A model generated the notes under the pieces. It had not been told where the DNA came from, did no database searches, and saw nothing but the letters and a program-made list of their open reading frames with translations. The translations under genes and the position numbers were made by a program. A DNA stretch of 64,000 nt from Thiomicrorhabdus sp. Lineage in GTDB: Bacteria; Pseudomonadota; Gammaproteobacteria; Thiomicrospirales; Thiomicrospiraceae. Positions within the stretch are counted from its first letter, which is position 1; each line of letters begins with the position of its first letter. Positions 177 to 59,988 of this stretch are shown here, piece by piece. The stretch is from positions 2,314,985 through 2,378,984 of the forward strand of contig NZ_OY759719.1 in NCBI RefSeq assembly GCF_963662555.1, written 5' to 3'.

Positions 177-2642
177 CTATAAGCTATATTGAATAGAATT
201 TAGAAAATCAGAGAGTTGTTGCTGATTAATCTCTGAACTAGACTGCGCTTTTATAATGATTTGATTTGTTTGTTGTTTATCAACAGAAGCCAATAAATTA
301 ATTAAATCTAAAACCGCTGAGGTATCTTTGAACAGGTTAGGGTATTGTTTTAATAACTCTATTGCTCCTTCAGAATTCCCTAGAAAGGCGATAAGGTTTG
401 CTAGCCTTGGCAGATAATTAATATCAACTTGGCATAATGACTGTAATGACTTGATGGCTACTTCATAATCTTCAAGCTTAACTGCTAATGGGTAAACACT
501 GTTTTGAATGAGATATAACTCATAATTTGGATCTAAAGTAATTAAATGAATTAATGCTTCTTTTTCTTGACCTTGAAGTTGCATGATTAAAGTTGCGGTA
601 TATTTTTTGTAAAAAAGTAATTCAGCATCCTGTTGGTTTTCTAATTGTTGATAAATTTCTTGTACCTCTTCTAGTGAAGAAGCCTGAAAAGCCTTTAAAA
701 GTCTATTAATCAATTCAGCAGGATCTATTTCCATTGTCGTTTGCTCAAATTTTGCATCAAGGTTTTTATTTGAGGTAAATACTTCTGCATACTGAGCATC
801 TAAATCAGCGACCAGGCCTGGAACATTTTCTTTATAGTAATCTATTGAGTTAGGTGCAAAATAATCTAACCATACATAAAACCGCCCAGGAACCCCACTC
901 TCAATCCAATGATGCACTAGAGCCTCAAAATCAACATTTTGGGTTATCTCATTTTCCCTAAACTTAATTTCTTCTTGAGCCTTTTCTAGCTTTTCAATAA
1001 ATCGTTTTGTAGCAACTCTAATGCCTGAGAAAAAATCGATAAATGACTGACTAATCTCATCATTAGACATCGCTTGTTCAGAATCAAGCGGCTTTAAGGT
1101 TTGCATAAATTCATCATAAGCGTAATTGACCATTACTGAATAATCACTGGCTAGCTTTCCTTCCAATCTTTTTTTAAGCTTAATGATTTCGTTAATACGC
1201 TTTTGCTTCAAGGCAGGCTTTTCAAAAAGTGTAGAGGCTAACTGCTGCCCCTGTTGAGATATTTTTTGTAATGCATTTAACCAACCAACATGTTGATTTA
1301 TTTGACCTCTCATTTCTTTTAAAAAATGTCGTGTTGTCTCAGCATCAAAAGCCAATTCTTTAGAAAAAAGTTCAATGGCATTTTGCTTATTACTTACCAA
1401 ATCAATCTCTTTCGTTGCTTGATAGGATATCCCTTTTGCAACCGCGGCCGTTTCACTTAAGTTAAATACGTTTAAGTTTGAACAAAACGCTTTAAAGTTC
1501 ATCAATTGATTTTCAAAACTATTGAGAGCCATATAAAGCTGTAGATTGGTAGTCGTCATCTCTCCCAAATAATTAGTGACTTGAACCTCGCCTTTTGCAA
1601 CCACTTGCTTTCGTGCTTCAACACTTGCAGACTCGTGCGTTTTTCCTTCAGGTGTGAAGCATAAATCGACACCAGCCAAATAAATGTTTCTTAATCCTAA
1701 ACAAACAGCGGCACCAAACAGGCTATTAGAGACCGTTGGTCCGCCTGCATCAAAATTATTTTCGCTTCCTCTTCTCCAGGGAAAACGGTTTTGTGCATAG
1801 GTTTTTAAACCACCCCATTGCCGAATAATCGTTGGGCAAGGATGATTGCCAGTAATCAAAACACTTTGTTCCTGAAATAAATACATTTCTCTAGAATAGT
1901 CAAACATCAATGGTTGAGGGTCAACTACCCCGATAAAATCTGGTGTAATACCCTCTTGCTTAAGACGTCCACAGATCCGACTTACTGCAAAAATCCACAA
2001 TTTATCTTGGTTTTCTTTTATCCAAGGTATCAGACCATCAAGAGAAGGCCCTCCTCCCAAAACGATTGCTGGCACATTTTTATCTAACTTATTTTCAAGC
2101 TTGGATATGGGGTGCATTAAATCACTCAAGTTTTCTAACTGACAATCATAAAACTGTTTAAAATTTTGATTATCCTGTCTATCGGCAGAAAAACGATTAA
2201 TTGCTTCTGTCATTTTCTCAGACACCCCTTGGTAGGGCTGTTCATTACCTGAGGCCATTATGGAGTTCAAAGCCATAACGGCATTACGTACAATATAATC
2301 ACGATAATCCGTATATAGCTGATCCAAATCAAAATCTTCTATATTGAACAACTCAAATTTAAAGTTTTCATACTCAGCGGTTAAATTTGGTCGAGTAGAG
2401 TTCAAAGATTCAATGACTTCAGGGAAATCCAAACAGATAAAACGTTGACCTGAAGTTGAAATTTGAGCCAAGTAGTCCAACAACAATCCAGAATCCGTTC
2501 CCAAGACAACAAACAATTGATTTTCTGGCAAAGACGTTCCAACAAATTGGCGATACACATCACTGGAACGGTGTTGTTTAAAGACCTCAGGATAATAGCC
2601 AGTCAAAACGGTTTCATTAAAAGCGGTGTTGGTTATAGTCAT
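177..2642 (-). CDS. Maf-type motility accessory factor / flagellin nonulosonate glycosyltransferase (DUF115, MptE-like)
   Basis: The 821-residue protein has the DUF115/MptE-like core: AIVLGGGPSLDG near residue 193, then ICGRLKQEGITPDF and IGVVDPQP. This is the signature of Maf (motility-associated factor) proteins, which transfer pseudaminic or legionaminic acid from the CMP-sugar to Ser/Thr of flagellin in the cytoplasm. The C-terminal half is helical with TPR-like character (residues about 640-820). It is the last gene of a minus-strand cluster encoding nonulosonic acid synthesis and lies downstream of the flagellar flg genes, which supports the role. The flagellin substrate is not in this window. 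Which nonulosonate it uses cannot be told from sequence alone. Confidence 0.85.
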   Translation of the reverse strand: MTITNTAFNETVLTGYYPEVFKQHRSSDVYRQFVGTSLPENQLFVVLGTDSGLLLDYLAQISTSGQRFICLDFPEVIESLNSTRPNLTAEYENFKFELFNIEDFDLDQLYTDYRDYIVRNAVMALNSIMASGNEQPYQGVSEKMTEAINRFSADRQDNQNFKQFYDCQLENLSDLMHPISKLENKLDKNVPAIVLGGGPSLDGLIPWIKENQDKLWIFAVSRICGRLKQEGITPDFIGVVDPQPLMFDYSREMYLFQEQSVLITGNHPCPTIIRQWGGLKTYAQNRFPWRRGSENNFDAGGPTVSNSLFGAAVCLGLRNIYLAGVDLCFTPEGKTHESASVEARKQVVAKGEVQVTNYLGEMTTTNLQLYMALNSFENQLMNFKAFCSNLNVFNLSETAAVAKGISYQATKEIDLVSNKQNAIELFSKELAFDAETTRHFLKEMRGQINQHVGWLNALQKISQQGQQLASTLFEKPALKQKRINEIIKLKKRLEGKLASDYSVMVNYAYDEFMQTLKPLDSEQAMSNDEISQSFIDFFSGIRVATKRFIEKLEKAQEEIKFRENEITQNVDFEALVHHWIESGVPGRFYVWLDYFAPNSIDYYKENVPGLVADLDAQYAEVFTSNKNLDAKFEQTTMEIDPAELINRLLKAFQASSLEEVQEIYQQLENQQDAELLFYKKYTATLIMQLQGQEKEALIHLITLDPNYELYLIQNSVYPLAVKLEDYEVAIKSLQSLCQVDINYLPRLANLIAFLGNSEGAIELLKQYPNLFKDTSAVLDLINLLASVDKQQTNQIIIKAQSSSEINQQQLSDFLNSIQYSL
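812..821. repeat. CCAGGCCTGG, exact 10-base core copies inside genes
   Basis: This is the first of seven exact cores translated within genes but lacking one or both TTA/TAA flanks: 812, 8238, 31878, 41470, 51488, 52541 and 52976. An eighth, at 35694, is in a terminator loop. One-base variants lie at 3058, 6929, 21646, 28615, 30460, 59048 and 62295. Confidence 0.9.
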
Positions 2643-2694
2643 AATGCCTTCGTTCTTGAATCACTGATTAAAAATGCTTGAGTCGCTTTAACAG

Positions 2695-3327
2695 CTATGC
2701 TGTCGGTTTTTCTAATAAAAACCAAGTAGGATCATCTAGTGGATATGATGGGTCGTTATGATAGACAAAACCATAGTCAACTAATTTTAAGTCTGGATGT
2801 TGTGCCATTAATTCCCCTGCAAAGTCACGTTTAAAATACTTACTGGTATTTCCTCGGTAATTCACTTCAACAGGTGTTGGATTATAGGATTCCGCTAAAA
2901 ATATCCATCGATGACTGGCATCGTATAGTTTTTTATAAACATGGGTTAATTCATCAGGGTTAATATGAATTAACACATGCAAAACCATAGTCATTTCATA
3001 GGTTTTTTGAGGTACAAAATCTAAAATTGATTGCTCAAAAATATCCTCGCACTTACCCCAGGCCTGTAAAGATTGTGCGGCAGTGTTGTTAATTTCAATT
3101 GCTGATAATTCAGTGCTTGGCAACAGTGCATTAACCGCTTTTAGGTTTAAACCAATATTTGAACCAAATTCTAATACCGATTGAATTAATCCTGTTTTTG
3201 CTAAAATTTTTGAAAATAAGGCTGTTTTACTAATCAGTAATCGTTCATCCTGATTTCTTGCTATATAGTCATCGCCAAATTGTCCTGCCCAAAACTTCTC
3301 TTGCTCTGTTTTATATTCCATATCCAA
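2695..3327 (-). CDS. Pseudaminic-acid-biosynthesis-associated methylase (SAM-dependent)
   Basis: This 210-residue class I SAM methyltransferase begins EQEKFWAGQFGDDYIARN, the N-terminus typical of the methylase family found in pseudaminate clusters (TIGR03587-like). The SAM-binding glycine loop is VLEFGSNIGLNLKAV near residue 51, followed by the acidic ELSAIEIN. It lies 52 bases upstream of the Maf-type gene in the same operon. The likely role is methylation of the nonulosonate or a precursor, but the position and substrate are unknown. The family call is firm; the function is inference from context. Confidence 0.75.
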   Translation of the reverse strand: MDMEYKTEQEKFWAGQFGDDYIARNQDERLLISKTALFSKILAKTGLIQSVLEFGSNIGLNLKAVNALLPSTELSAIEINNTAAQSLQAWGKCEDIFEQSILDFVPQKTYEMTMVLHVLIHINPDELTHVYKKLYDASHRWIFLAESYNPTPVEVNYRGNTSKYFKRDFAGELMAQHPDLKLVDYGFVYHNDPSYPLDDPTWFLLEKPTA

Positions 3328-5938: not shown

Positions 5939-6636
5939 TAGATCTCTGCTGTTTCTTTAAGAAGTGAATACATTAATTCAGCACGCTTCCAGTCTTGATC
6001 GTTATCAATATCTTGCACAAAATAACGTGGTATAAGCATAGCCTTAGATTTTTTTGAGTAAAAAGGTAACTCATTTTGATAGGCTTGCGGTTTACCCCAA
6101 TAAAATTGCCCGGCATCATGAAAAGCGGCTTGTAAATCTTGTGATCTCATGTTGTAACACTCAGGCTGAAACATCTCAACATAGTGGTTTGAATCAACCT
6201 TGAAGGCACGTTGAATGGGAGCGGGATAGTCGGTTGCTGTAAAACAATAATCGGCATTACTTTCAATTAATTCGTTGTAGGCTTTAATTATAAACTCGGG
6301 TTTGATTAATGGCGCTGTTGGATAAATACAACAAACATAGTCAAATTGCTGTCCTTTATTTTCAAACCAATCTATCGCGTGTTTAATAACCGGTACTGTT
6401 GTAGCATGATCATTAGATAAATTACCAGGCCTGGTAAAAGGAACCTGTGCACCTAAACTTAGTGCAATATCAGCAATTTCATCATCGTCGGTAGAGACTA
6501 CAACCATATCAAAACATTCTGATTTTTGGGCAGCCTCTATTGAATATTGGATAATAGGTTTACCGTTAAATTCTTTGATATTTTTACGAGGGATTCTCTT
6601 ACTCCCCCCTCTTGCAGGAATCACACAAAGATTCAT
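5938..6636 (-). CDS. neuA: CMP-nonulosonate cytidylyltransferase (NeuA/PseF family)
   Basis: This 232-residue protein activates the nonulosonic acid with CTP for transfer. The N-terminal IPARGGSKRIPRKNI is the CTP-binding signature, followed by STDDDEIAD and the GQFYWGK segment. The size matches single-domain PseF/NeuA enzymes. The gene is second in the operon, 57 bases after pseB. A perfect copy of the 16-bp palindrome TTACCAGGCCTGGTAA lies inside the coding sequence at 6422-6437, where it is translated. Whether the sugar is pseudaminate, legionaminate or another nonulosonate is open. Confidence 0.85.
   Translation of the reverse strand: MNLCVIPARGGSKRIPRKNIKEFNGKPIIQYSIEAAQKSECFDMVVVSTDDDEIADIALSLGAQVPFTRPGNLSNDHATTVPVIKHAIDWFENKGQQFDYVCCIYPTAPLIKPEFIIKAYNELIESNADYCFTATDYPAPIQRAFKVDSNHYVEMFQPECYNMRSQDLQAAFHDAGQFYWGKPQAYQNELPFYSKKSKAMLIPRYFVQDIDNDQDWKRAELMYSLLKETAEI
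6422..6437. repeat. TTACCAGGCCTGGTAA palindrome, perfect copy (inside neuA)
   Basis: A perfect 16-bp copy within coding sequence. Confidence 0.95.
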
Positions 6637-6693: not shown

Positions 6694-7692
<999 letters not shown>

Positions 7693-7724: not shown

Positions 7725-9053
7725 CTAAGCCGCAAAATTCAGGAGTTCTTTATAACGGTTTTTGGCCTGGGTCACTTTTTCAATGTATCGTTTTGTTTCA
7801 TCAGACTGATGAGAATATCTTAAGGTACGATAGACCTGGCGTGGGTGCAACTGGTTAATTCGTTTAATTGCTTGCTCAGGTGTTTTACCAAATAGTTTTA
7901 ACACAGTCGATAATCCACCATTATAAGCTGAGATAGCGACTAACTCTTTATTGTCTGAATTACGAATCCCTTTTAAATAGAGATTATTAAGTAAACTCAT
8001 ATAAGCCGTACCCACTCTAATATTTTCTTTTGGATTAAACAATTCTGATTGCGTAGGTTGGCCTGATCGCTGATCGATGTATTTATACACATCTCTCCCC
8101 GCTGCATTGGCTTTTACTTGCATTAAACCTAGGGCGTTAGATTGGCTTACCGCTTTAGGATCAAATGCACTTTCCACATGCATTATGGCAAAAATTAATT
8201 CCGCTGAAACCTGATATTTTTTTGCATACTCTTTTACCCAGGCCTGGTAATTTTTAATTGACTGAGGAAGCTTATGCTCAGTTAAAGGAATGGTTATTAC
8301 TTTAAACTCACCTTGTTCATCTTGCACTTTCTCAGAATTATTTAACATTAAGTACTCCGCGTATCTAAATGCTTGTGCAGGGTAGCGAACAGGTTTTTTA
8401 TATTCATTTAGTGCTTTGCCATAAAGGTAGGGTTTTAAACGGGTATTAATAACGTTTGAAGAAACTAAATCGTCTGCATCTAAGTGATTTGGTTGAACTA
8501 AAAGCCGTGATAATGCTTTTTGCATCTCATGTTCAGAATAGTCTGCTGAAAATTCGACCAACACCTCATTATCTAACTCCACAACTAAAGGAGGATTTTT
8601 GGTTGAAGAAGCGGAATTTGTTTTACCATCATTATTTTCAATCAGATTATCTTTAATTAAATCACCTTGATGCGAGCGATTATCCCGATTATCCTGATTA
8701 TCCTGATTATCAAAAATAACCTGATTTTGATTTTGTCGATTTGAGACTTCGCTATCTAACTGATTACTTTCTTGCTCTTTAGGTGTTTGATTTTTGACAG
8801 TAGTTAAATCAACAGAGTAATGTTCAGCTTTTACAGGCAAAGAATACGGCGCGGGTGACAATCTATTTTCTGAAACAATCGTACGAATACCAACTCCGTC
8901 AAAAACTGGGTTAGCCCCTGAATTTAGCGTGGTATTGGCTGAGACAGAATTTAATACAACCCAGTTTTGAAAAGGTGCGACATAGCTAGCGCTGAGTAAT
9001 ATCAACCCAGAAACAAACACTGTTGTTGTCATTGTTATGATTTGTTTATCCAC
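7725..9053 (-). CDS. MltC-like exported lytic murein transglycosylase
   Basis: This 442-residue protein has an N-terminal hydrophobic signal/anchor (residues about 8-28), a Gln/Asn/Asp-rich low-complexity linker (about 95-145), an MltC-like middle region and a C-terminal SLT domain. The SLT domain shows the catalytic Glu in IFAIMHVESAFDPKAV, then SNALGLMQVK and ISAYNGG. The predicted start is GTG. Its Shine-Dalgarno GGAGG lies 7 bases upstream inside the 3' arm of the flgL terminator hairpin; an ATG 21 bases inside is an alternative. It follows flgL directly, and FlgJ here lacks a muramidase domain. This enzyme may therefore open peptidoglycan for the rod; that role is inference. Confidence 0.8.
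   Translation of the reverse strand: MDKQIITMTTTVFVSGLILLSASYVAPFQNWVVLNSVSANTTLNSGANPVFDGVGIRTIVSENRLSPAPYSLPVKAEHYSVDLTTVKNQTPKEQESNQLDSEVSNRQNQNQVIFDNQDNQDNRDNRSHQGDLIKDNLIENNDGKTNSASSTKNPPLVVELDNEVLVEFSADYSEHEMQKALSRLLVQPNHLDADDLVSSNVINTRLKPYLYGKALNEYKKPVRYPAQAFRYAEYLMLNNSEKVQDEQGEFKVITIPLTEHKLPQSIKNYQAWVKEYAKKYQVSAELIFAIMHVESAFDPKAVSQSNALGLMQVKANAAGRDVYKYIDQRSGQPTQSELFNPKENIRVGTAYMSLLNNLYLKGIRNSDNKELVAISAYNGGLSTVLKLFGKTPEQAIKRINQLHPRQVYRTLRYSHQSDETKRYIEKVTQAKNRYKELLNFAA
8678..8713. repeat. 9-bp tandem repeat coding for Asp-Asn-Gln/Arg
   Basis: Four imperfect copies of GATTATCCT stand in tandem on the plus strand inside the linker of the lytic transglycosylase gene. They encode the repeated DNQ/DNR triplets. 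In-frame copy-number change would alter only linker length. Confidence 0.85.
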
Positions 9054-13596: not shown

Positions 13597-13706
13597 CGAA
13601 CAATCCCCTGCGTAAGGTTTTTTCTGGTTATGAATAGCTCTAATGGCTCATTTTATATTTTTATCCATCTCTTTTCTAAAGAGGGACTTTTCTATTAACA
13701 CTTTAA

Positions 13707-13828: not shown

Positions 13829-13844
13829 TTACCAGGCCTGGTAA
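13829..13844. repeat. TTACCAGGCCTGGTAA palindrome, perfect copy (intergenic)
   Basis: One of five perfect 16-bp copies in the window; it lies between the flgH terminator and the flgI promoter. See the finding on the CCAGGCCTGG family. Confidence 0.95.
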
Positions 13845-19975: not shown

Positions 19976-20075
19976 ATAAAAAAACGGAAAAAATTGCCGC
20001 ATGGCATACAACATAAAAAATTCTCTTTATAAAACAGTTGATTACTTAAAGAAAAAAATACCTTTTAGATGAATT

Positions 20076-20091
20076 TACCAGGCCTGGTAAA
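20076..20091. repeat. TTACCAGGCCTGGTAA palindrome, perfect copy (intergenic)
   Basis: A perfect 16-bp copy between flgB and flgT, between the promoter cluster and the flgT terminator. Confidence 0.95.
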
Positions 20092-21644: not shown

Positions 21645-22616
21645 CTAGGCCTGGTGTTGTTTGGCTCTATTTACTTCATCAATACGATTAACGACCGTAT
21701 TGGCTAACTCATCCGAATGCCATTTAGACAAAAATACATTAGCCCCAACCTTTTCGGTTAGGGTTTCATTAAAACCGCCACTAAGCGATGAGTTAAGCAC
21801 CACAAAAATATCTTTTAAGCGATCATCTTTACGAATACTTGAGGTTAACGTATAACCATCCATCTCTGGCATTTCAATATCAGAGATTACCATCAACACT
21901 CGATCACTCACCCTAGGGGAAATTCCTTTATCGGCATCGTCAGCCCATTTTTGTAAAAACTCTAAAGCCAATTTACCGTTGTTGACAATTTTATTGGCAA
22001 TACCCATTTTGTCGAGAATACTTTTTAACTGAGTACGTGCAACGGTTGAATCATCCGCACCTAAAACAAAGTACTCTTGATCTTTAGTCTTACCAATGTG
22101 TGATGAAATAAACTCATCGGATACTTCATTACTCAAGCCTGAAACTTCAGCTAATACCTTTTCAACGTCAACAATTTGTACAATTTGCTCTTGAGCACGG
22201 GTAATACCTGTCAAATAATTAACATTTTGTAAACTATCTGGTGGAGCCAAGATATCTTCCCATCTAAGATGCACAATACGATCTACATCTTCAACCAAAA
22301 AACCTTGAATTGAACTGTTGAACTCCGTGACTATCGTCAAACTCTCTGAATATTTTGCTGGGTCCACTGGCTCTAAATCAAGTGCCTTGGCCAAATCAAT
22401 CATAGGCATGGTTTGCCCACGAATATCAGCAACTCCTACTACTCTAGAATCGGCCTTAGGAACAGAAGAAATTTCAGGCGTGCGAATCACTTCACGCACT
22501 TTAAATACATTAATACCAAACAACTGCTTCCCTTTTATAGTAAAGAGAAGCAACTCCATCCGGTTCATACCTGCTAGAGAAGTTCTTTGATCAACCCCTT
22601 TTAAAAAGCTCGCCAT
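21645..22616 (-). CDS. cheV: Chemotaxis coupling protein CheV (CheW domain plus receiver)
   Basis: This 323-residue two-domain protein links chemoreceptors to CheA. An N-terminal CheW domain (residues about 20-165, LLFTIKGKQLFGINVFKVREVI, VVGVADIRGQTMPMIDL) is followed by a receiver domain whose phospho-acceptor Asp is in VISDIEMPEMDGYTL near residue 245. It precedes flgT by 10 bases and is divergent from flgA. The flgA-flgM-flgN / cheV arrangement is common in Pseudomonas and Vibrio. The final codons overlap a near copy of the AGGCCTGG repeat (21646-21655). Confidence 0.95.
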   Translation of the reverse strand: MASFLKGVDQRTSLAGMNRMELLLFTIKGKQLFGINVFKVREVIRTPEISSVPKADSRVVGVADIRGQTMPMIDLAKALDLEPVDPAKYSESLTIVTEFNSSIQGFLVEDVDRIVHLRWEDILAPPDSLQNVNYLTGITRAQEQIVQIVDVEKVLAEVSGLSNEVSDEFISSHIGKTKDQEYFVLGADDSTVARTQLKSILDKMGIANKIVNNGKLALEFLQKWADDADKGISPRVSDRVLMVISDIEMPEMDGYTLTSSIRKDDRLKDIFVVLNSSLSGGFNETLTEKVGANVFLSKWHSDELANTVVNRIDEVNRAKQHQA

Positions 22617-28017: not shown

Positions 28018-29451
28018 TCATTCAGAAAAATTAACAAACTTTTCGAAGACACCATCATCTGCCCAGTAAACATCTGGCAATAAGTGAAATTGTCCATTAG
28101 CATCACGAATATAAGTTCCGTTAGCCGTCTCAATCAAGGTATCTACATCAGATGAAAGATTGCTTGATTTGACAATTTCAATCGCCACACGTCCTAAAGC
28201 ATAAAATAGGCCATTATTAGAAAATGATTGTGATTTTGATTTATTGTTTGTCATTTCAGTTGACAAAGAGAGAGGTAAAACAGCAAATGTTTCTTGCCAT
28301 GCATCAAGATGGTTAAGCAAGTAGTTAGCTGACGGGTTCTTACTCGGATACCAAATATGAGTAATGGGTTTAGAGTTTCCAATAAAATTCAAATAAGGTG
28401 CAACTTGGATAGCAAGGTTTTGAGGTACAAAAGAAATAACCGCATCTATATCTTTACGAGCTCTTGGCGAAAACTCTAAGTGGGTATGCAATACTTTTTG
28501 TAACCAAGCTTTACGAGCCTCAGACTGATTAATATTTAAACCATCATCAATTGCCTGACCAACTGTTTTCTCTATATCTTTAGAAATATAGCTCTCTGCA
28601 TGTGGATAATTAGACCAGGCCTGTAAAAATGCTTCCTCAAGCTCTTGGGAAGTTGGTTCTGGTTCTTTTAACACCAATACACGCTCATAACCTGCTTGAT
28701 TAAGGATTTGAAAAACCTGCTCTAAACCCGCTTGTTTTCCTGGAGACAAACTAAATTCATAATTCGTAAAAGAGGTCACATCATTAAAATAAAGTGTTTG
28801 AACTCCAGTCTTTAGTTCTTGCCATTGAGCGATTTTTTCTTTTTGCAATGGTCCAAAAATAAAACTCGGATCATAGTATTTTAAAACCTCCCAGGCTTCA
28901 AAAGCTGAATCGTAAATAGCTAAATCTAAAGCGATTAATTTGCCTTCAAAACCGGCCTCTGTTAGGCCTTTCTGTAACGCTTTTTGAATACTTGCTCCCA
29001 CACTGCCATAAACACCAGTCACAGGAAGCACTATAGCAACTACCGCATTTTTGTCATGCATTGGAAAATCAATCGATTTGCCCGATGAAAAAAACGAAAA
29101 AAATGATGAGCTTTTCTTAGGAATAGACTCAACATATTTTCTTAATCTTTCTATTCGCGCTTGAAAACCAGGCAGAATATATTGCTTATCAAGCTGATTT
29201 AAATACTGCTTTACCTGCTTTGCATCACCGTGCTTTTGAGACATTTCAGCACGAAGGATCATGATTTCTTGATCTAACCGCTTAACCTGTTGTAATCGAG
29301 AACTAGATTGATTTTGCCTATTTTCATTACCCGCATAAGCACCTGATTGTTTTGACCCTTTTAGCAGTTCATCCCACTCACTTGCATAGGCAAAGGTTGC
29401 CATAGGCAAAAAAATCACTAGCCAACTAAACATTACAAGCCAAATTCGCAT
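28018..29451 (-). CDS. LppC/LpoA-like periplasmic protein (possible PBP1a activator)
   Basis: The 477-residue exported protein (signal peptide WLVIFLPMATFAYA) has the periplasmic-binding type I fold of the LpoA C-terminal domain. Segments include VAIVLPVTGVYGSVGASIQKALQKGL, FIFGPLQKEKIAQW, DAVISFVPQNLAIQVAP and NGLFYALGRVAIEIV. LpoA stimulates the peptidoglycan synthase PBP1a. This form lacks the lipobox and most of the LpoA N-terminal TPR domain, so activator function is uncertain. It lies 101 bases before the coiled-coil protein gene. Confidence 0.65.
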   Translation of the reverse strand: MRIWLVMFSWLVIFLPMATFAYASEWDELLKGSKQSGAYAGNENRQNQSSSRLQQVKRLDQEIMILRAEMSQKHGDAKQVKQYLNQLDKQYILPGFQARIERLRKYVESIPKKSSSFFSFFSSGKSIDFPMHDKNAVVAIVLPVTGVYGSVGASIQKALQKGLTEAGFEGKLIALDLAIYDSAFEAWEVLKYYDPSFIFGPLQKEKIAQWQELKTGVQTLYFNDVTSFTNYEFSLSPGKQAGLEQVFQILNQAGYERVLVLKEPEPTSQELEEAFLQAWSNYPHAESYISKDIEKTVGQAIDDGLNINQSEARKAWLQKVLHTHLEFSPRARKDIDAVISFVPQNLAIQVAPYLNFIGNSKPITHIWYPSKNPSANYLLNHLDAWQETFAVLPLSLSTEMTNNKSKSQSFSNNGLFYALGRVAIEIVKSSNLSSDVDTLIETANGTYIRDANGQFHLLPDVYWADDGVFEKFVNFSE

Positions 29452-29503: not shown

Positions 29504-32145
29504 TTAGGTAATATTAAGGGATTTAGACACAATCTCATAAACATCTTTAGATAAGTTATCTGTTTTTAAGATGCTATTTAAGGCCTGTTTCATCATCTCT
29601 TGGCGTTGAGTGTCATACCTTTGCCAGTGAGTGAATGGTGCCACAATTCTAGCCGCAACTTGTGGATTAATGGCATCCAGTTTAATCACTTGCTGTGATA
29701 AAAAGGTATACCCTTCACCGTCTATACGATGAAAGCCCAGCATGTTTAAACGACCAAATACTCCTAAAACACTTCTCACTCTATTTGGATTGGTATAACT
29801 AAAATCTTTAAGCTCTACCAGTGCCTTAACATGTTCTAAGGCATGAATATGATGAGAAGAGGCTTGAAGTGTGAACCATTTATCAAGCACTAAAGAATCC
29901 TCTTTCCATTTAGAGTAAAAGCTCTCTAAACAGACTTGTCTTTGCGGGCTATCAGTATGTGACAAGGTTTCTAATGCCGCTAAGGTATCAGTCATATTAT
30001 GTGCGTTATTAAACTGATTTACGGCTTTATCGATATGATTATCTGCACTCATTAGATAGTTTAAGCAAATATTTTTTAATTTTCGATTAGCAATATCATC
30101 TTTTTGATATCGATACACCTCTGAAGAATCACTTAATTCTCTATACAGATCTGTAAAGACCGATTCATAATGATTTGCCAATGCCGTTTTTATCCAGCGG
30201 TGGACGTGATAAATTGCATCAACATTAATCTGTTTATATTGCTCACCGATATAAGTGAAATCTGGTAATGTCAAAGCAAGTGCTCTTAATGCATTATCTA
30301 AAGAATGATTATTTAAAACACCGCCAAACGCTGCTATAAAGTTCTTAGACAGATGCAAATCTTGTTCATTCTCATAAGCGACAATATTACGACCAATCTC
30401 TCTTAAGGCCAAAGACTGCATAGATTCCCATTGCACAAAACTATCGGTATCAAATTGTACCAGGCCTGCTAAATCCTCATCACTCTGCTGATAATCGAGA
30501 ATGACTGGTGATGTAAAACCTCGTAACATAGAGACAACAGGTTCAACCGTTACGTTTTCAAACTTAACGATTTGTGTATTTTTAGTTAAAGAAACTAATG
30601 CTTCATAATCCGTTATCTTAACAAAATCTTGACACGATTCAGAAACCTCTAAAGCCAATGACTGACCTTGTTTTGAGAATAGAGCAAGTTTTACCGGCAA
30701 TAAAAGTGGCGTGAAGTTATTTTCTAAAGCAGGAATCGTTTGGGTAAATTCAATGGTTAGACTTTGAGCTCGTTGATTATATGAAGTGACTACTGAAAGA
30801 ACAGGCGTTCCATTTTGTATATACCATTGATGCATTTGAGATAAATCGACATCATTAGCATCTGCCATTGCATTTCTAAAATCATTCACCGTCACAGCTT
30901 GACCGTCATGTCTTTTAAAATACAAATCCATTCCTTTTCTAAAACCTTGCTCACCCAGCAAAGAATGGTAAAGCCTTACTACTTCGGCACCCTTTTCATA
31001 AACTGTCATCGTATAAAAGTTATTCATTTCAATATACGACTGAGGCTGAATGGGATGGGACATCGGGCCAGCATCTTCTGGAAATTGATTACTTCTTAAA
31101 CGCTTTACATCTTCAATTCGTTTTACGGCTGGAGAGAGCATATCCGCAGTAAACTCTTGATCTCTAAAGACCGTTAAACCCTCTTTAAGAGTTAATTGAA
31201 ACCAATCGCGGCAGGTTACTCTGTTGCCTGTCCAGTTATGAAAATACTCATGACCAATTACTGCTTCAATACCTTCATAATCAACATCAGTAGCTGTTTC
31301 AGGTTTTGCTAGTACAAACTTAGAGTTAAAGACATTTAACCCTTTGTTCTCCATCGCCCCCATATTAAAATCATCAACTGCAACAATCATATAAATATCT
31401 AAATCATAAATAAGACCAAAACGTTCTTCATCCCATTTCATTGATTTGATAAGTGACTTCATAGCATGTTCGCATTTATCTATGTTTTTTGGTTCAACAT
31501 AAATTCTAAGATCCACATCACGATCATCTAATGTACGGTATGTATCTTGAATATATTCAAGATTACCTGCAACCAGAGCAAATAGATAACAAGGCTTTTT
31601 AAATGGATCCTGCCAAACAGCGTAGTGCTTATTATTTGGGAGGTCTCCAGAATCAATCAGATTTCCGTTAGATAGTAATACGGAATTTTCAGATTTGTCT
31701 GCAATGATCTTAGTCGTGAATAAAGTTAAAACATCAGGCCTATCCATAAAGTAGGTGATTTTTCTAAAACCTTCCGCCTCACACTGAGTGCAATAATTAC
31801 CACTTGTACGATACAAACCTTCTAAAGCCGTATTATTTTGTGGGGCGATTCCGTTGTAATCGTTAATTCAAATTCTTCCAGGCCTGGTAAACAAACAATA
31901 AGGCTCTCAGTTGTTTGCTGGCATTTTTGTGTAATTTCTTCACTGTTAATGAAAACCGATACTAGTTTTAACTGCTCACCATCCAAACTCAGTTGCGTCT
32001 GCTTTGATGAATTAATTATTTTCATAGAATTCGTTACAACCGTTGCTGTCGGCTGTAAATCAAAAGTTAAATAACTTGATTGAATCTCAAGTTTAGGTGC
32101 TTGGTAATCAGATAAATAGTGAACTAGTGGGGTATCATTTTTCAT
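29504..32145 (-). pseudogene. pepN: Aminopeptidase N (pepN), split by a one-base frameshift
   Basis: Two adjoining frames together give a full-length M1 aminopeptidase N. The 5' part (32145-31822) has the N-terminal domain with LVSVFINSEEI. The 3' part continues from NTALEGLY through [15 protein letters not shown], the GAMEN motif, the zinc site HEYFHNW with the downstream Glu in [14 protein letters not shown], and the C-terminal helical domain. The frames join if one A is restored in the GAATCG at 31846-31851 (plus strand CGATTC), giving [16 protein letters not shown]. All catalytic residues lie after the break. No slippery heptamer is visible. It is either a recent mutation or a sequence error; the rest of the gene shows no decay. 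Confidence 0.85.
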
Positions 32146-34451: not shown

Positions 34452-35645
34452 ATGTCAAAAATTTTAGGCATCGGAAATTCAGTTTTAGATATCATCTTAA
34501 CCGTTGACCACCACCCCCAAGAAGATGAAGAGTTACGAGCAAGCAATAAACAAATCTCTACTGGTGGCAATGTTAACAATTCTTTATACGTGCTTAATCA
34601 GCTAGGTCACCAAACCGACATTTGCACTACCATTGCAGCAGATAGTGAATCTAAACAACTTTTGTCAGGCCTTGCAGAACGTAACATTTCTACTGAGCAT
34701 GTTCAAAAATTTATAAAAGGTAGAACGCCAACCTCTTTTGTGACGTTAAATGCAGAAAACGGTCATAGAACCATTGTTCATTTTCGTGATCTGCCTGAAA
34801 TCAGCTTTGACTTTTTTGCCAAAATAGAAATAGAGGAATATGACTGGTTACATTTTGAAGGCCGTAATATGGCTCAACTACCAGGCATGGTTAATATTGC
34901 TAAAACGTTTTTAACCTATCAGCCAATTTCTCTTGAAGTTGAAAAACCTAGAGAAGGTATCGAAACCTTATTTAACAGCGTTAACCTAATCATATTTTCA
35001 CATCATTATGCTAAAGCGAAAGGATTTGCAAATGGTAAAGAACTACTAGAAAGCCTTGACCTACCAAATGCTAATCTTGTTTGTACTTGGGGAGAAGATG
35101 GCGTTTGGTTGAAAGCGCCTGGAGGCTCTATTGAACATGTTGAAGCCGAGCAAGTTAATCCTGTAATTGATACTTTAGGCGCTGGAGATACATTCAATGC
35201 TGGCTTAATTCACGCTTTAACAGAAAAACAACCACTTGCTGATGCCGTTAGTTATGCCAGTAAACTTGCTGCCAAAAAATGCCTGCAACCAGGCTTAGAT
35301 AATTTATTGAAGGCAAATGAGGCGAATAAAGCTTTAGCCAACATTAAACAATTAAGCAATGCTAAAACAACTATTGTGAACGATGCTTCTGGCCGATCAT
35401 TGGTATTAATTAAATATGAAGATGGTGTGCGTTGCTTTTTGAATAATTGCCCACATCAAGATGTACCTTTAAATGAAGCTTACAAAATTGATGTAAATCC
35501 TTTTGAGAAAACCATGAAATGCTCAGTACATGATGCCTATTTTAATATTGAGGATGGTTTATGTATTGAGGGACCGTGTTGGGACGAGTCTCTGACATCA
35601 ATTGCTATCAAGTTAGATGAAAACGGTGATATTTTCCTGGCTTAA
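34452..35645 (+). CDS. PfkB-family sugar kinase fused to a C-terminal Rieske [2Fe-2S] domain
   Basis: The 397-residue protein has two domains. Residues about 1-295 are a ribokinase/PfkB carbohydrate kinase: ILGIGNSVLDIILTVDHHP, the GGNVNNS substrate segment and the catalytic DTLGAGDTFNAG near residues 240-251. Residues about 307-397 form a Rieske ferredoxin-like domain with Cys333-Pro-His335 and Cys357-x-x-His360 as cluster ligands. The frame runs unbroken across the junction. Adenosine/ribokinase-like kinases are normally about 300 residues and have no iron-sulfur domain. The substrate is unknown. It is divergent from fnr and ends at a strong bidirectional terminator. Confidence 0.85.
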   Translation: MSKILGIGNSVLDIILTVDHHPQEDEELRASNKQISTGGNVNNSLYVLNQLGHQTDICTTIAADSESKQLLSGLAERNISTEHVQKFIKGRTPTSFVTLNAENGHRTIVHFRDLPEISFDFFAKIEIEEYDWLHFEGRNMAQLPGMVNIAKTFLTYQPISLEVEKPREGIETLFNSVNLIIFSHHYAKAKGFANGKELLESLDLPNANLVCTWGEDGVWLKAPGGSIEHVEAEQVNPVIDTLGAGDTFNAGLIHALTEKQPLADAVSYASKLAAKKCLQPGLDNLLKANEANKALANIKQLSNAKTTIVNDASGRSLVLIKYEDGVRCFLNNCPHQDVPLNEAYKIDVNPFEKTMKCSVHDAYFNIEDGLCIEGPCWDESLTSIAIKLDENGDIFLA

Positions 35646-35680: not shown

Positions 35681-35754
35681 AAAAGCCAATTTACCAGGCC
35701 TGGCATGTCCTATGGCCATCTATGACGTGTGAGCATAGGGTAAATTGGCTTTTT
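35681..35754. terminator. Bidirectional terminator with a 15-bp stem and a repeat-containing loop
   Basis: AAAAGCCAATTTACC (35681-35695) and GGTAAATTGGCTTTT (35739-35753) are perfect complements. The 43-base loop carries most of a CCAGGCCTGG motif and the CCTATG/CATAGG arms of a second repeat. It separates the convergent kinase-Rieske and rlmB genes. Confidence 0.8.
35690..35744. repeat. Composite repeat, copy 1
   Basis: TTTACCAGGCCTGG, then CCTATG and TGAGCATAGGGTAAA about 36 bases further on. The same order with 14 of 15 matching bases in the last block recurs at 59044-59099. Confidence 0.6.
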
Positions 35755-40619: not shown

Positions 40620-42152
40620 TTGCAAAGGTCAACATTCAGTTTATTTACGACAAACCGATTCCTGATAACCCTTATCGGTTTAACACTGTTTGTTAGCTTA
40701 AAATGCAACGCTAGTATAATTACAAACCCCAAAAGCATTACTGAACGCATTAACCAACCATTTATTGGCGATCTAGACAAAATCAGAGAACGAAGAATCT
40801 TAAGGGTTTTGGTTAGTTACAATAGAACAAATTTCTTTCACACTTTACGTGGAGATAGAGGTCTTGAACATGACCTAATGAAAGAATTTGAAAAGTATCT
40901 TAATCGAGGGCCTCGTAAAGAGCGTTATCGAACTCACATTGTGTTTTTAGCCCACCCTTTTGACCAGCTAGTACCCGACTTAAAAGCAGGCTATGGTGAT
41001 ATAGTCGCGGCAGGTTTGACGGTCACCCCTGAGAGAGAGAGTTATGTTGACTTTACCAGGCCGTACATTACAGACATAAGCGAAATTTTAATATCCAACA
41101 AAAACAACCCCGCTCCAAAAACACTTCAAGAACTTTCAGGTAAACAAATTGTTGTAGTTGGCAATAGTAGTTACATCATACATATACAACGATTAAACCA
41201 AGAGCTTGGACGACTTGGATTACCAGCTATTGAAATAGTGACCGCAGACCCTCTTTTAGAGGCAGAAGATATTCTTGAAATGGTTAATGCCGGAATATTT
41301 GATTACACCGTTGTTGATGATCATATCGCTGAAATATATCAAAACGTTTTTCCTAACATTCGATTACAAAAAGATTTTGCCTTTCACTATGGTGGGAATA
41401 TCGCCTGGGCTATAAACCAAAACCTTCCTGAACTTAAACAGACACTTAACGACTTTATTACCAAATATGCCAGGCCTGGTAAATTTTTAGGAAACAGCCT
41501 TTATAAAAAATATTTTAAAAACCCTTATTGGGTTAAGCAACCACTCTCTTTAAATGCTTTAGATGAAACGCCCTGCTTGCAATATTATTTTGAAAAATAT
41601 GCCGTATTTTTTGATTTTGATTGGTATCTAATTGCATCACAAGCTTTTCAGGAATCAGGCTTTAAACAAGATTTAAGAAGCCGTGCCAATGCGATAGGCA
41701 TTATGCAAATAAAACCGTCTACAGCTCGATCAAAAATCGTCAATGTGCCCAATATTAATAATCTAGAAAATAACATTCTGGCTGGTGTTAAATACCTAGC
41801 ATTTATTAGAGACTATTACTTTAGTAAACCTGAATATTCTAAAGAAGACCGTATCAACTTCACTTTAGCTGCCTATAACGCTGGGCCTGGTCGTATTCGT
41901 AAACTACAACGCATGACAAAAGCCAAAGGCTTAAACCCTTATAAATGGCATTACAATGTTGAAGTACTTGCAAGACAAGAGATTGGTCAAGAAACGGTTA
42001 ACTATGTAACCAAAATTCAAAAAACCAAGATAGCCTTAAAACTGGCTAAAGAATTGGCGATTCAAAAACATCAATTCAAAGAAGAGACGCTTGAAGAACA
42101 TCAAGATTCTCAGACTGACAATGACCTGCCTCAAGAACCTTCGGGCAATTAA
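40620..42152 (+). CDS. mltF: Membrane-bound lytic murein transglycosylase F-like protein
   Basis: The 510-residue exported protein has an N-terminal hydrophobic signal, an SBP_bac_3-type domain (ILRVLVSYNRTNFFHTLRGDRGLEHDLMKEF through GNIAWAINQNLPELKQTLNDF) and a C-terminal SLT domain. The catalytic Glu is in IASQAFQESGFKQDL, with NAIGIMQIKPSTA and LAAYNAGPGRI. This order defines MltF, which cleaves peptidoglycan at the outer membrane. The predicted start is TTG at 40620 after GGGG. One exact CCAGGCCTGG copy (41470-41479) is translated within it. Confidence 0.9.
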   Translation: MQRSTFSLFTTNRFLITLIGLTLFVSLKCNASIITNPKSITERINQPFIGDLDKIRERRILRVLVSYNRTNFFHTLRGDRGLEHDLMKEFEKYLNRGPRKERYRTHIVFLAHPFDQLVPDLKAGYGDIVAAGLTVTPERESYVDFTRPYITDISEILISNKNNPAPKTLQELSGKQIVVVGNSSYIIHIQRLNQELGRLGLPAIEIVTADPLLEAEDILEMVNAGIFDYTVVDDHIAEIYQNVFPNIRLQKDFAFHYGGNIAWAINQNLPELKQTLNDFITKYARPGKFLGNSLYKKYFKNPYWVKQPLSLNALDETPCLQYYFEKYAVFFDFDWYLIASQAFQESGFKQDLRSRANAIGIMQIKPSTARSKIVNVPNINNLENNILAGVKYLAFIRDYYFSKPEYSKEDRINFTLAAYNAGPGRIRKLQRMTKAKGLNPYKWHYNVEVLARQEIGQETVNYVTKIQKTKIALKLAKELAIQKHQFKEETLEEHQDSQTDNDLPQEPSGN

Positions 42153-43675: not shown

Positions 43676-43691
43676 TTACCAGGCCTGGTAA
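43676..43691. repeat. TTACCAGGCCTGGTAA palindrome, perfect copy (intergenic)
   Basis: A perfect 16-bp copy between the divergent thiI and fbp genes, close to the thiI start. Confidence 0.95.
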
Positions 43692-51009: not shown

Positions 51010-51870
51010 TTATTTTATTAGCAATATATTGTCCAATAATCGCGTGTTTCCTAATCTAGCAACGCCAAGAATAACTAGGTTTTTATCAAAGGATTTTACA
51101 GGCAATAAAGTATCGGCATCACAAACCTGTATATAGTCAACTTGATCAAATCCTTCTGCTAACAAACTCTGACTTGCCGTATTACACAAATCAATAAAAG
51201 CGTTATTTCCGGATTGAATTGCAGTAGCGATATCTTGTAATAAAGTTTGCAGTTTAGGGGCAATTTTACGTTGCTCTGCAGACAAGTATTGGTTTCTTGA
51301 ACTAAGGGCTAATCCGTCTATATCTCGACCAATAGGAGCTGAAATAATGTCAATTGGCAGTGCCAAATCATCCACCATTGCTTTTATAACCACTAGTTGC
51401 TGGTAATCTTTTTGGCCAAAAATAGCTTTATCAGGCTGCACCATATTAAATAGTTTACAAACAACGGTTGTAACACCATCAAAATGTCCAGGCCTGGTAG
51501 CCCCCTCTAACAGGCCTGTCAAATCGGTTGGCACATGAACACTAGTTTGATTAATTCCTTTTGGATATATTTCATCCACACTCGGATAAAAAACCGCATC
51601 AACCTGCATATCAGCCAATTTTTTTTGGTCAGACTCAAACGTTCTAGGATAAGTTGCAAAGTCTTCATTAGGCCCAAATTGCATTGGGTTTACAAAAATA
51701 CTCACCACGACCTTGTCGCACTTCTGTTGAGCCATTTTAACCAAGCTAAGATGACCATTATGCAAATTCCCCATAGTCGGTACAAAGCCAATGGAATAAC
51801 CTAATTTTTTCCATTCTGATACCTGAACTCGTAGTGGCTTAACTTGTTCTAAGATTTGCATACAATTCAT
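51010..51870 (-). CDS. panC: Pantothenate synthetase PanC
   Basis: The roughly 286-residue enzyme joins pantoate and beta-alanine with ATP. Motifs are GFVPTMGNLHNGHLSLV (HIGH-like), VVSIFVNPMQFGPNEDF, FGQKDYQQL and LALSSRNQYLS (KMSKS-like). ATGs at 51870 and 51861 are both possible. It follows panB by 115 bases. An exact CCAGGCCTGG (51488-51497) is translated inside, with a near copy 22 bases further on. Confidence 0.96.
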   Translation of the reverse strand: MNCMQILEQVKPLRVQVSEWKKLGYSIGFVPTMGNLHNGHLSLVKMAQQKCDKVVVSIFVNPMQFGPNEDFATYPRTFESDQKKLADMQVDAVFYPSVDEIYPKGINQTSVHVPTDLTGLLEGATRPGHFDGVTTVVCKLFNMVQPDKAIFGQKDYQQLVVIKAMVDDLALPIDIISAPIGRDIDGLALSSRNQYLSAEQRKIAPKLQTLLQDIATAIQSGNNAFIDLCNTASQSLLAEGFDQVDYIQVCDADTLLPVKSFDKNLVILGVARLGNTRLLDNILLIK

Positions 51871-51985: not shown

Positions 51986-52777
51986 TTAGCCGACTAAATA
52001 CTCTTGTGAAGGAAACTCTGCATTTTTTACCTCGCGGACATAACTAGCTAAAGCCTCTTGAATAGAGTCGGCTTGTTCCATAAAGTTTTTAGAAAACTTT
52101 GGTGTGTTACCCACGGTAATACCTAAAATATCATTCAAAACCAATACTTGACCACTCGTATACAGACCTGAACCAATTCCTATAACAGGAATCGACAAAG
52201 CCTCAGTAATTTCTTTTGCTAATGATTGTGGCACACACTCAAGTACTAACATATCCATACCAGCTTCTTGAAGCTGCAATGCCTCTTTACGCAAACGCTC
52301 TGCAGAAGAATCATCTTTACCTTGCACTTTATAACCGTGTTTTTCTACTGACTGAGGCAAAAGACCAAGATGCCCACAAACAGGAACACCAATTTCAGAC
52401 AAAGCAGATACCGCATTAATGACTCGATTTCCACCTTCTAGTTTTACCATATTTGCCCCCGCCTCTTTCATTAGACGGGCGGCACTTTTAAGGGTTTGCT
52501 CTACAGTGGTATCAGACATAAACGGTAAATCAGCAATACACCAGGCCTGGTGATTTCCTCTCTGAACCATTTTTGTGTGATAAACCATGTCATCTAAAGT
52601 AACGGGTAAAGTTGTTGTATGCCCTTGCACAACCATGCCTAAAGAGTCACCCACCAAAATTACCTCTACACCAGCTTGAGAAACCCAATGGGAAAAGCTT
52701 GCATCATACGCAGTTAAACACGCAATTTTGTTACCTTCTTGATGCATTTTTTTTAGTTTGGAAAGAGTGATTGACAT
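51986..52777 (-). CDS. panB: Ketopantoate hydroxymethyltransferase PanB
   Basis: The 263-residue TIM-barrel enzyme transfers a hydroxymethyl group from methylene-tetrahydrofolate to ketoisovalerate. It shows [32 protein letters not shown], the magnesium ligands in VGDSLG and [18 protein letters not shown] and VIGIGSG. It lies before panC on the same strand. Exact CCAGGCCTGG at 52541-52550 is translated within it. Confidence 0.96.
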
Positions 52778-52901: not shown

Positions 52902-53387
52902 CTAATTAAGAGTCATAAGATAAGACTCATCAAGATTATCTAACAAATCTGTAACTAAACCTTTACCAGGAATGACCAGGCCTGGAGAAATTTCTGCTAG
53001 TGGTACCAGAACAAAATCTCGTAAAGCAATTTGAGAATGCGGCACGATTAAAGTCTCGGTTTCAATGAGTTGCTCGCCATAAAGCAAGATATCTAAATCA
53101 ATCACTCGCTCACCCCAATGACGTTTTTTTATTCGCCCTTGTTCTTGCTCTATTTTTTGCAATGAAAGCAACAATTCTTGAGGCGATAATTCAGATTGGA
53201 TTTTACATACTGCATTTACAAAATCTGGTTGATCTTGCGGGCCCAAAGGTTTTGAACCATAAAAAGAGGAACACTGATCGAGGTGAGTTTTAGGCAATAC
53301 CGAAATAGATTTTAAAGCTTTTTTTAATTGCTCAACTGGGTTAGCAAGGTTGCTACCCAGTCCAAGATAAATAGTATTGTTAGACAT
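52902..53387 (-). CDS. folK: 6-hydroxymethyl-7,8-dihydropterin pyrophosphokinase FolK
   Basis: The roughly 161-residue folate-pathway enzyme shows IYLGLGSNLANPVEQLKKAL, FYGSKPLGPQDQPDFVNAV, and the signature RWGER-like RHWGERVIDLDILLYG, followed by VPHSQIALRDFVLVPLAEI. I start at MSNNTIYLGLG (53387). It lies 18 bases after pcnB, the usual pcnB-folK-panBC order of gammaproteobacteria. Confidence 0.95.
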   Translation of the reverse strand: MSNNTIYLGLGSNLANPVEQLKKALKSISVLPKTHLDQCSSFYGSKPLGPQDQPDFVNAVCKIQSELSPQELLLSLQKIEQEQGRIKKRHWGERVIDLDILLYGEQLIETETLIVPHSQIALRDFVLVPLAEISPGLVIPGKGLVTDLLDNLDESYLMTLN

Positions 53388-53405
53388 TAACAAACCAATT
53401 TCAGG

Positions 53406-59043: not shown

Positions 59044-59099
59044 TTTACTAGGCCTGGTAAACCCTGTTGCCTTAACATACCCTATGAGCATAGGATAAA
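59044..59099. repeat. Composite repeat, copy 2
   Basis: TTTACTAGGCCTGGTAAA (one base off the palindrome) followed after about 25 bases by CCTATGAGCATAGGATAAA. Same order and spacing as 35690-35744. It lies between the convergent trpS and amidohydrolase genes. Confidence 0.6.
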
Positions 59100-59929: not shown

Positions 59930-59972
59930 TAAGACACCTTTTTTAAGCGATTTAAATGAACCCAATTTAAAA

Positions 59973-59988
59973 TTACCAGGCCTGGTAA
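59973..59988. repeat. TTACCAGGCCTGGTAA palindrome, perfect copy (intergenic)
   Basis: A perfect 16-bp copy 44 bases before the amidohydrolase start. Confidence 0.95.

What the first reader, a model, noticed from the sequence alone, without database searches (positions are those of the whole stretch)
812..59988. An over-represented 16-bp palindrome, TTACCAGGCCTGGTAA, scattered through genes and gaps
Seen directly: the core CCAGGCCTGG occurs 13 times exactly (starts 812, 6425, 8238, 13832, 20079, 31878, 35694, 41470, 43679, 51488, 52541, 52976, 59976) and at least 7 times with one mismatch. Five copies are the perfect 16-mer (6422, 13829, 20076, 43676, 59973). With about 39% GC assumed, a given 10-mer of this composition is expected roughly 0.01-0.02 times in 64 kb. 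It appears in both coding and intergenic DNA, in different reading frames, so protein constraint does not explain it. No transposase is near any copy. Its core is two abutting CCWGG (Dcm-type) sites and contains AGGCCT. Possible roles: DNA-uptake sequence, nucleoid or partition protein site, HIP1-like highly iterated palindrome, or methylation target. The spacing is about one per 5 kb, with a gap at 43.7-51.4 kb.
Basis: partly seen in the sequence, partly recalled or inferred. Interest (0 to 1): 0.78.

Follow-up and report, generated by a model that had tools for sequence, protein, structure and literature searches.

The report
Genome-wide palindromic tag in sulfur bacteria
Hundreds of copies of a short palindrome are scattered through this sulfur-oxidising bacterium's genome, relatives carry their own spelling of it, and it looks like the DNA tags by which some bacteria recognise DNA of their own kind, although that job is not shown here.

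Summary
CCAGGCCTGG occurs 13 times in the window and 590 times in the 2.70-Mb genome, reversed control 0; about 285 times an order-3 Markov expectation in a 464-kb sample. The organism is inferred to be a Thiomicrorhabdus. The site extends over about 22-24 bp, with A/T tracts 10-12 bp from the centre. Relatives carry other spellings (ACCGGCCGGT 1,025 copies in one genome; asymmetric AACAGGCCGGGT 482 in another) or none. Copies lie in genes and, 8-fold denser, in gaps; they show no origin/terminus trend, come and go mainly by substitution and persist in diverged orthologous gaps. Intergenic copies favour convergent genes and show arm covariation; asymmetric copies form terminator-like inverted pairs. 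This resembles the uptake sequences of Neisseriaceae and Pasteurellaceae. Methylation is not supported: the genome has no PF00145 or PF01555 methyltransferase. Against uptake: no link to PilT (5 of 29 motif-rich genomes lack it), a palindromic form, no known receptor. Best reading: an uptake-signal-like tag, partly reused as terminators; main rival: binding sites of an unknown chromosome protein.

The parts
812..821 (.). exact core CCAGGCCTGG, in ORF 177-2642 (-)
6422..6437 (.). perfect 16-mer TTACCAGGCCTGGTAA, in ORF 5938-6636 (-)
   Evidence: not kept in G030 or G016 alignments
8238..8247. exact core, in ORF 7725-9053 (-), lytic transglycosylase-like
   Evidence: core kept in G030, G015, G016
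13829..13844 (.). perfect 16-mer in the gap 13597-14027 beside flgI (12496-13596, -)
   Evidence: site in orthologous gap of G030, G009, G015, not G016
20075..20090 (.). perfect 16-mer in the gap 19806-20200
   Evidence: CAGGCCTG in orthologous gap of 4 of 4 relatives
31878..31887 (.). exact core, in ORF 31822-32187 (-)
   Evidence: not kept in 4 of 4 alignments
35694..35703 (.). exact core in the convergent gap 35646-35792
   Evidence: site in orthologous gap of 4 of 4 relatives
41470..41479 (.). exact core, in ORF 40620-42152 (+)
   Evidence: core kept in G030 and G015, not G016 or G009
43676..43691 (.). perfect 16-mer in the divergent gap 43665-43975, 11 bp from the thiI ORF (42201-43664, -)
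   Evidence: site in orthologous gap of G030, G009, G015, not G016
51488..51497 (.). exact core, in ORF 51010-51870 (-)
   Evidence: not kept in 4 of 4 alignments
52541..52550 (.). exact core, in ORF 51986-52777 (-)
   Evidence: core kept in G030 and G016, one base off in G015 and G009
52976..52985 (.). exact core, in ORF 52902-53393 (-)
   Evidence: core kept in G030 and G015, one base off in G009
59973..59988 (.). perfect 16-mer in the gap 59966-61000
   Evidence: site in orthologous gap of G030, not G009
3058..3067 (.). one-mismatch core CCAGGCCTGT
6929..6938 (.). one-mismatch core CCAGGCCTGA
21645..21654 (.). one-mismatch core CTAGGCCTGG
28615..28624 (.). one-mismatch core CCAGGCCTGT
30460..30469 (.). 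one-mismatch core CCAGGCCTGC
34881..34890 (.). one-mismatch core CCAGGCATGG
59048..59057 (.). one-mismatch core CTAGGCCTGG
61390..61399 (.). one-mismatch core CCACGCCTGG
62295..62304 (.). one-mismatch core CCAGGCCTGT

Best explanation
The palindrome is a genome-wide DNA recognition tag of the uptake-signal kind, found in part of the Thiomicrospiraceae. SHOWN: a site of about 22-24 bp (GGCC centre, variable half-core, A/T tracts 10-12 bp from the centre) is held at roughly 400-1,170 copies of its CAGGCCTG core in motif-rich genomes, in genes and gaps; it varies as dialects between lineages, changes mainly by substitution, and in gaps, above all between convergent genes, also takes a hairpin (terminator-like) form. 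INFERRED: a sequence-specific DNA-binding protein reads the site in double-stranded DNA, most likely when DNA of the same species is taken up in natural transformation; recombination of tagged fragments pushes copy number up by molecular drive, permissive gaps fill first, and hairpin-capable copies are reused as intrinsic terminators. NOT SHOWN: uptake, the receptor, competence of any of these species.
For: 590 copies, O/E 285. Coding copies keep the A/T flanks and lie along genes in all three frames, so the flanks are not only a terminator feature. Dialects: ACCGGCCGGT 1,025 in G023 against 0-15 in 31 other genus genomes; AACAGGCCGGGT 482 in G021 and 275 in G004 against 0-3 in 30 others; AACAGGCCTGTT, AGCAGGCCTGCT and mixed forms elsewhere. 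Dialects largely follow clades on a thiI tree of 30 species, as stated for DUS/USS (PMC12616744, passages). Lost sites are mostly ungapped: 21 of 32 alignments have no gap over 26 bp; evolution by point mutation is what PMC1939737 reports for uptake sequences (passages). Density per kb: convergent 2.55, tandem 0.95-1.02, divergent 0.51, the same order as DUS in N. meningitidis (375 in 268 tail-to-tail, 104 in 270 head-to-head regions; PMC1852404, passages and tables). Asymmetric copies are strand-balanced (242/240) and form + then - pairs 22-26 bp apart (8 among the listed G021 places, none in the opposite order), as DUS pairs do. ComEC is in G000 and 32 of 36 other family genomes.
Against: No uptake data and no receptor. 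Most dialects are palindromic; classical uptake sequences are not (PMC12616744 and PMC1939737, passages). Motif richness is unrelated to PilT: 24 with and 5 without PilT among 29 motif-rich, 19 and 2 among 21 motif-poor genomes (Fisher p = 0.68); G035, G063, G075, G080 and G081 keep 840-1,128 copies without it. PilP (PF04351) was found in 0 of 24 genus genomes searched. ComEC was not found in G004, a motif-bearing genome 92% complete in 520 contigs, nor in G006 (82%); both are drafts. Several motif-poor genomes have both ComEC and PilT (e.g. G003, G020, G024), which is neutral at best. Depletion of foreign DNA was not properly tested.
Confidence: 0.4

Rival explanations
1. The sites are bound inside the cell by an abundant, dimeric, sequence-specific chromosome protein (nucleoid organisation, segregation, replication or repair). 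Selection acts on the density of sites, and protein and sites drift together into dialects.
For: Symmetrical half-sites with flanking A/T tracts; coding copies show no arm covariation, as expected for two independently read half-sites; independence from PilT; retention in diverged gaps.
Against: No origin/terminus trend; spacing is exponential, not regular; an asymmetric dialect exists; from memory, no bacterial chromosome protein is known with this many near-exact long sites; dialects turn over inside one genus.
Confidence: 0.32
2. HIP1-like: the palindrome builds up because a methyltransferase acts on its core (GGCC, CCWGG or AGGCCT) and mismatch repair or selection favours methylated sites, as Elhai proposed for cyanobacteria.
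For: High-copy palindrome with a constant GGCC centre; one-off variants are commonest at the outer core position, a pattern that PMC4390886 describes for HIP1 (sections read).
Against: G000 has no match to PF00145 or PF01555, families that the same searches find in 10 and 11 of 14 control genomes; both are also missing in motif-rich G010, G015, G027, G033 and in dialect genomes G018, G021, G023, G025. A 24-bp site with A/T tracts is long for a methyltransferase. Other methyltransferase families were not searched.
Confidence: 0.08
3. The copies are simply intrinsic transcription terminators that share a stem sequence.
For: Intergenic copies: convergent excess and arm covariation at 7-9 bp from the centre (z 5.5); G021 pairs fold at -30 to -42 kcal/mol, three of four just after a stop codon.
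Against: 258 of 413 pooled sites are in coding sequence; 0 of 87 coding copies lie within 60 bp of a stop; coding copies show no arm covariation; copies occur in divergent gaps too (15 of 149 placed).
Confidence: 0.07
4. A Chi-like recombination signal of the RecBCD/AddAB kind.
For: Copy density (1 per 4.6 kb) is like that of Chi in E. coli K12 (1,008 in about 4.64 Mb, PMC1939737 table); sequence differs between lineages.
Against: Chi is short, asymmetric and strand-biased (recalled). Here the site is palindromic or, where asymmetric, unbiased: 242/240 and 19 +/17 - in seven stretches of one contig.
Confidence: 0.05
5. A mobile repeat (REP, MITE or target of a transposon) copied through the genome.
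For: Dispersed, short, palindromic; a few close pairs.
Against: No conservation beyond about 12 bp from the centre; relatives without the site mostly align without a gap; coding copies fit all three reading frames.
Confidence: 0.02

Closest known systems
DNA uptake sequences (DUS of Neisseriaceae, USS of Pasteurellaceae)
   Same: Hundreds to thousands of copies on both strands, in genes and gaps; lineage-specific dialects around a constant inner core; A/T-rich extensions; change by point mutation; tail-to-tail excess and + then - pairs as terminators (PMC1852404, PMC3630211, PMC1939737, PMC12616744: passages and tables read).
   Different: Mostly palindromic here; fewer copies per Mb; no demonstrated uptake or receptor; motif-rich genomes without PilT.
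HIP1 (GCGATCGC) of cyanobacteria
   Same: Highly iterated palindrome, strongly overrepresented, with variant palindromes in some relatives (PMC4390886, passages and two sections).
   Different: Longer site with A/T tracts; no C5 or N6/N4 family methyltransferase in this genome; about 0.2-0.5 copies per kb, HIP1 0.3-2.7 per kb.
18-nt palindrome of Caldithrix abyssi
   Same: Dispersed palindrome of unknown function with a stop-to-stop gap preference (PMC5317091, passages).
   Different: 38 exact copies, absent from well-supported genes, with a strand-specific centre.
matS, SlmA, Noc and parS sites (recalled, no call)
   Same: Palindromic protein sites spread on the chromosome.
   Different: Far fewer copies and domain-restricted (recalled); here no regional trend.

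Membership tests
DNA uptake sequence (DUS/USS) | Strong genome-wide overrepresentation on both strands, in genes and gaps | tested here: met
   asymmetric form 242/240
DNA uptake sequence (DUS/USS) | Lineage-specific dialects around a constant inner core | tested here: met
   the constant part is GGCC
DNA uptake sequence (DUS/USS) | Gain and loss by point mutation | tested here: met
   21 of 32 alignments ungapped; 14 of 32 keep the core
DNA uptake sequence (DUS/USS) | Convergent-gap excess and + then - pairs as terminator hairpins | tested here: met
   termination itself not measured
DNA uptake sequence (DUS/USS) | Non-palindromic, directional core | tested here: not met
   Palindromic in G000 and most dialects; directional only in G021 and G004
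DNA uptake sequence (DUS/USS) | Carriers have the transformation pilus and ComEC | tested here: inconclusive
   ComEC in 33 of 37 family genomes; PilT missing in 5 of 29 motif-rich genomes; PilP in 0 of 24 genus genomes
DNA uptake sequence (DUS/USS) | DNA with the motif is preferentially taken up; a surface receptor binds it | not testable with these tools
   Needs an uptake assay
HIP (highly iterated palindrome) | Extreme overrepresentation of a palindrome | tested here: met
HIP (highly iterated palindrome) | Cognate methyltransferase acting on the core | tested here: not met
   No PF00145 or PF01555 match in G000; other methyltransferase families not searched
REP/MITE | Arises by insertion of a unit; extragenic | tested here: not met
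Intrinsic terminators | Located after stop codons as hairpins | tested here: not met
   True of part of the intergenic copies; 258 of 413 sites are coding
Partition, nucleoid-occlusion or macrodomain sites | Origin or terminus bias | tested here: not met
   23 segments, 1-7 copies each, no trend over the GC-skew switches
Chi-like signal | Strand polarity | tested here: not met
   242/240 and 19/17 for the asymmetric form

The most novel reading that the evidence does not exclude
Thiomicrospiraceae carry a third, independent and mostly palindromic class of genome-wide self-DNA tag, with quickly evolving dialects (palindromic to asymmetric within one genus), that depends neither on the PilT pilus motor nor on C5 or N6/N4-family DNA methylation: either uptake works through an undescribed receptor and motor, or the tag marks self DNA inside the cell.
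Probability: 0.4. Interest if true: 0.85.

Novelty: new variant of a known kind. Interest (0 to 1): 0.65.

Why it matters
The classical sequence tags for self-DNA uptake are known from two bacterial families (recalled, and as framed in PMC12616744, passages). A third lineage that shows palindromic, asymmetric and absent states inside one genus, with cultured free-living members, would make it directly testable how such tags arise, change dialect and vanish, and whether drive or selection keeps them. Either way, a highly iterated palindrome is kept here without the cytosine methyltransferase families usually invoked.

Tried and rejected
Dcm/HIP1 methylation: not supported for this genome. Mobile repeat: not supported. 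Hairpin for every copy: rejected, coding copies show no arm covariation; a first test by genome was too weak to show the intergenic signal. Origin/terminus trend and regular spacing: not found. Depletion in foreign DNA: only one case looked at, a 20-kb stretch with one giant ORF and no copies, which I do not count as evidence; the other long gap (52.8-78.0 kb) is unremarkable and holds near-copies. Strand bias of the asymmetric dialect inside genes: 11 same, 4 opposite, p = 0.12, undecided. PilP absent in 24 of 24 genus genomes while PilT is present in most, so PilP may be too divergent for the model. Viral contigs: the 16-mer is in 4 stretches of the viral collection; hosts unknown, no conclusion. 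The letters of the 10-mer in papers: 49 papers, 20 listed, none of the listed titles on this subject. Judging a genome motif-poor rests on counts of three spellings in the genus and of CAGGCCTG alone in the rest of the family; another dialect is not excluded there, above all in genomes of which I sampled little (G001, G012, G022, G028, G032, G034) or nothing (G058 onwards).
Full report
OBSERVATION. The window holds 13 exact CCAGGCCTGG and 22 sites with at most one mismatch; two coordinates of the finding are one base off. The window is G000:C1:2314985-2378984 of a single 2,696,250-bp contig with 590 copies and 0 of the reversed control. In a 464-kb sample (window plus 20 stretches) there are 93 sites against 0.33 expected by an order-3 Markov model. 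Their symmetrised profile has information out to about 11 bp from the centre, consensus AAWTTACCAGGCCTGGTAAWTT; one-off sites are commonest at the outermost core base (A 21, G 17, T 4), and A or G at that base is what other species' dialects use.

ORGANISM. Most rows shown are Thiomicrorhabdus, Thiomicrospira or Hydrogenovibrio; 12 are clearly unrelated taxa with one hit each. G016 and G027 are 'same genus' as the window, so I infer a Thiomicrorhabdus.

PLACE IN THE GENOME. 1-7 copies in each of 23 segments of 20-24 kb, no trend over the GC-skew switches. Spacing of the first 100 sites is exponential, with two pairs 24 bp apart. With a simple ORF caller 52 of 93 sites are intergenic although 86.5% of the sample is coding: 0.83 against 0.10 per kb. 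In five genomes (179 sites, 87 coding) coding copies use all three frames, Pro-Gly-Leu-Val most often (44 of 87), spread along genes with 0 of 87 within 60 bp of a stop, and keep the A/T preference at 10-12 bp.

DIALECTS. CCAGGCCTGG runs from 0 to 856 in the 31 other genus genomes. CAGGCCTG is 236-1,173 in 18 of the 37 family genomes (G000, G002, G005-G010, G015, G016, G018, G019, G025, G027, G030, G033, G035, G036; reversed control 0-27 in these) and 3-74 in the other 19 (control 0-36). In one search, 25 further family genomes split in the same way (0-67 or 479-1,128). G023 has ACCGGCCGGT 1,025 times, the other 31 genus genomes 0-15. G021 and G004 have AACAGGCCGGGT 482 and 275 times, the other 30 0-3. 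Stretches show the extended forms: G018 AAActgAACAGGCCTGTTcagTTT, G008 AAA.TAAgCAGGCCTGCTAa.TTT (8 sites), G005 and G025 ANCAGGCCTGNT, G023 TTTACCGGCCGGTAAA with A/T tracts at 10-12 bp, G021 AAACTcAACAGGCCGGGT. On a thiI tree of 30 species (15 of 27 inner branches well supported; G004 and G008 not in it) dialects go largely with clades and motif-poor species fall in several places.

GAIN, LOSS, CONSERVATION. Window sites aligned to relatives keep the exact core in G030 6 of 10, G015 5 of 8, G016 2 of 8, G009 1 of 6, with flanks 51-82% identical; 21 of the 32 alignments are ungapped over 26 bp. BLAST may extend through a shared motif, so gaps were also defined by flanking genes: CAGGCCTG is in 16 of 19 orthologous gaps (one comparison of 20 lacked a flanking gene, one gap was 4.3 kb). 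Leaving the 4.3-kb gap out, the full core is in 14 of 18, against 904 of 6,410 (14.1%) other 10-mers of the same gaps; without the long gap at 59973, 13 of 16 against 360 of 4,416. These comparisons share ancestry and are not independent. In the 147-bp gap at 35694, three relatives share none of 101 other 10-mers but all have the site, with new self-complementary flanks in G009 and G015.

HAIRPIN SUBSET. Pooled over 14 genomes (413 sites: 258 coding, 155 intergenic; four of the genomes were sampled at the window's orthologous region, so some sites are shared by descent), arm bases at 7-9 bp from the centre match more often than permuted arms in intergenic copies (275 against 230 of 465, z 5.5), not in coding copies (z 0.5); at 10-12 bp neither does (z 0.8 and -0.7). 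Density per kb is 2.55 in convergent, 0.95-1.02 in tandem and 0.51 in divergent gaps (149 placed sites). Among the listed G021 places, 8 + then - pairs are 22-26 bp apart and none in the opposite order. Four were folded: -30.0 to -41.6 kcal/mol; three lie 28-37 bp after a stop codon, one in a divergent gap. Pairs of this kind and a tail-to-tail excess are described for DUS/USS terminators (PMC1852404, passages and tables; PMC3630211, passages).

METHYLATION. PF00145 matches 20 and PF01555 20 of the 58 genomes searched, G000 in neither. Both are absent in motif-rich G010 (86% complete), G015, G027 and G033 and in dialect genomes G018, G021, G023 and G025. Other methyltransferase families were not searched.

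COMPETENCE. ComEC (PF03772) is found in 33 of 37 family genomes; the misses are G031 (99% complete, motif-poor), G004 (92%, asymmetric dialect), G006 (82%, motif-bearing) and G029 (79%, motif-poor). PilP is in 0 of 24 genus genomes, while 11 of 13 genomes of other families exceed its cut-off (its 14 named controls have none). PilT, taken here as a TIGR01420 hit near 500 bits, is not tied to the motif: of 50 genomes at least 90% complete, 24 of 29 motif-rich and 19 of 21 motif-poor have it (p = 0.68). G035, G063, G075, G080 and G081 hold 840-1,128 CAGGCCTG without it. The table counts G014 and G031, which have only a 415-bit hit, as lacking PilT. This weighs against uptake by a classical retracting pilus unless another motor serves or the loss is recent.

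VERDICT. It works like a DUS/USS-type tag in its anatomy and evolution; membership is not established, because uptake was not testable, the site is mostly palindromic, and carriers without PilT exist. Nine searches of the held open-access papers listed no description of this motif or of an uptake sequence in these bacteria; most subscription journals are not held, and only passages or sections of the eight papers opened were read.

Noticed in passing
L316 1310-19294 (G000:C1 about 276.3-294.3 kb): One ORF of 5,995 codons in a stretch of 46.7% GC (sample mean 37.8%), without any CAGGCCTG; probably an acquired giant gene, not annotated here.
   Followed up: no
L213-L214 (G017), L225-L226 (G029), L201-L202 (G001), L223-L224 (G028): Runs of eight or more G/C are strongly overrepresented in stretches of this motif-poor clade (CCCCCCCC 39 against 0.7 expected in 24.7 kb of G017).
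   Followed up: no
G014 and G031 (genome handles): Both have one TIGR01420 hit of 415 bits and none near 500 bits, unlike most sisters; G031 also lacks a ComEC match, and both are motif-poor.
   Followed up: partly
L009 around 1500-1535; L002 2471-2496; L142 2828-2853: Close pairs of the palindrome 24-25 bp apart, more than chance suggests (2 pairs among the first 100 sites of G000); being palindromic, a pair can form a long stem.
   Followed up: partly
L217 8980, 13856, 17289, 17517; L218 2800 (G021): Coding copies of the asymmetric dialect often read K/E-T-Q-Q-A-G, so the tag imposes a recurring peptide on unrelated proteins.
   Followed up: no
G019:C1:781649-783122: The thiI match is broken into three pieces with stops inside and forms a long branch; possibly a decaying copy or sequencing error.
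   Followed up: no
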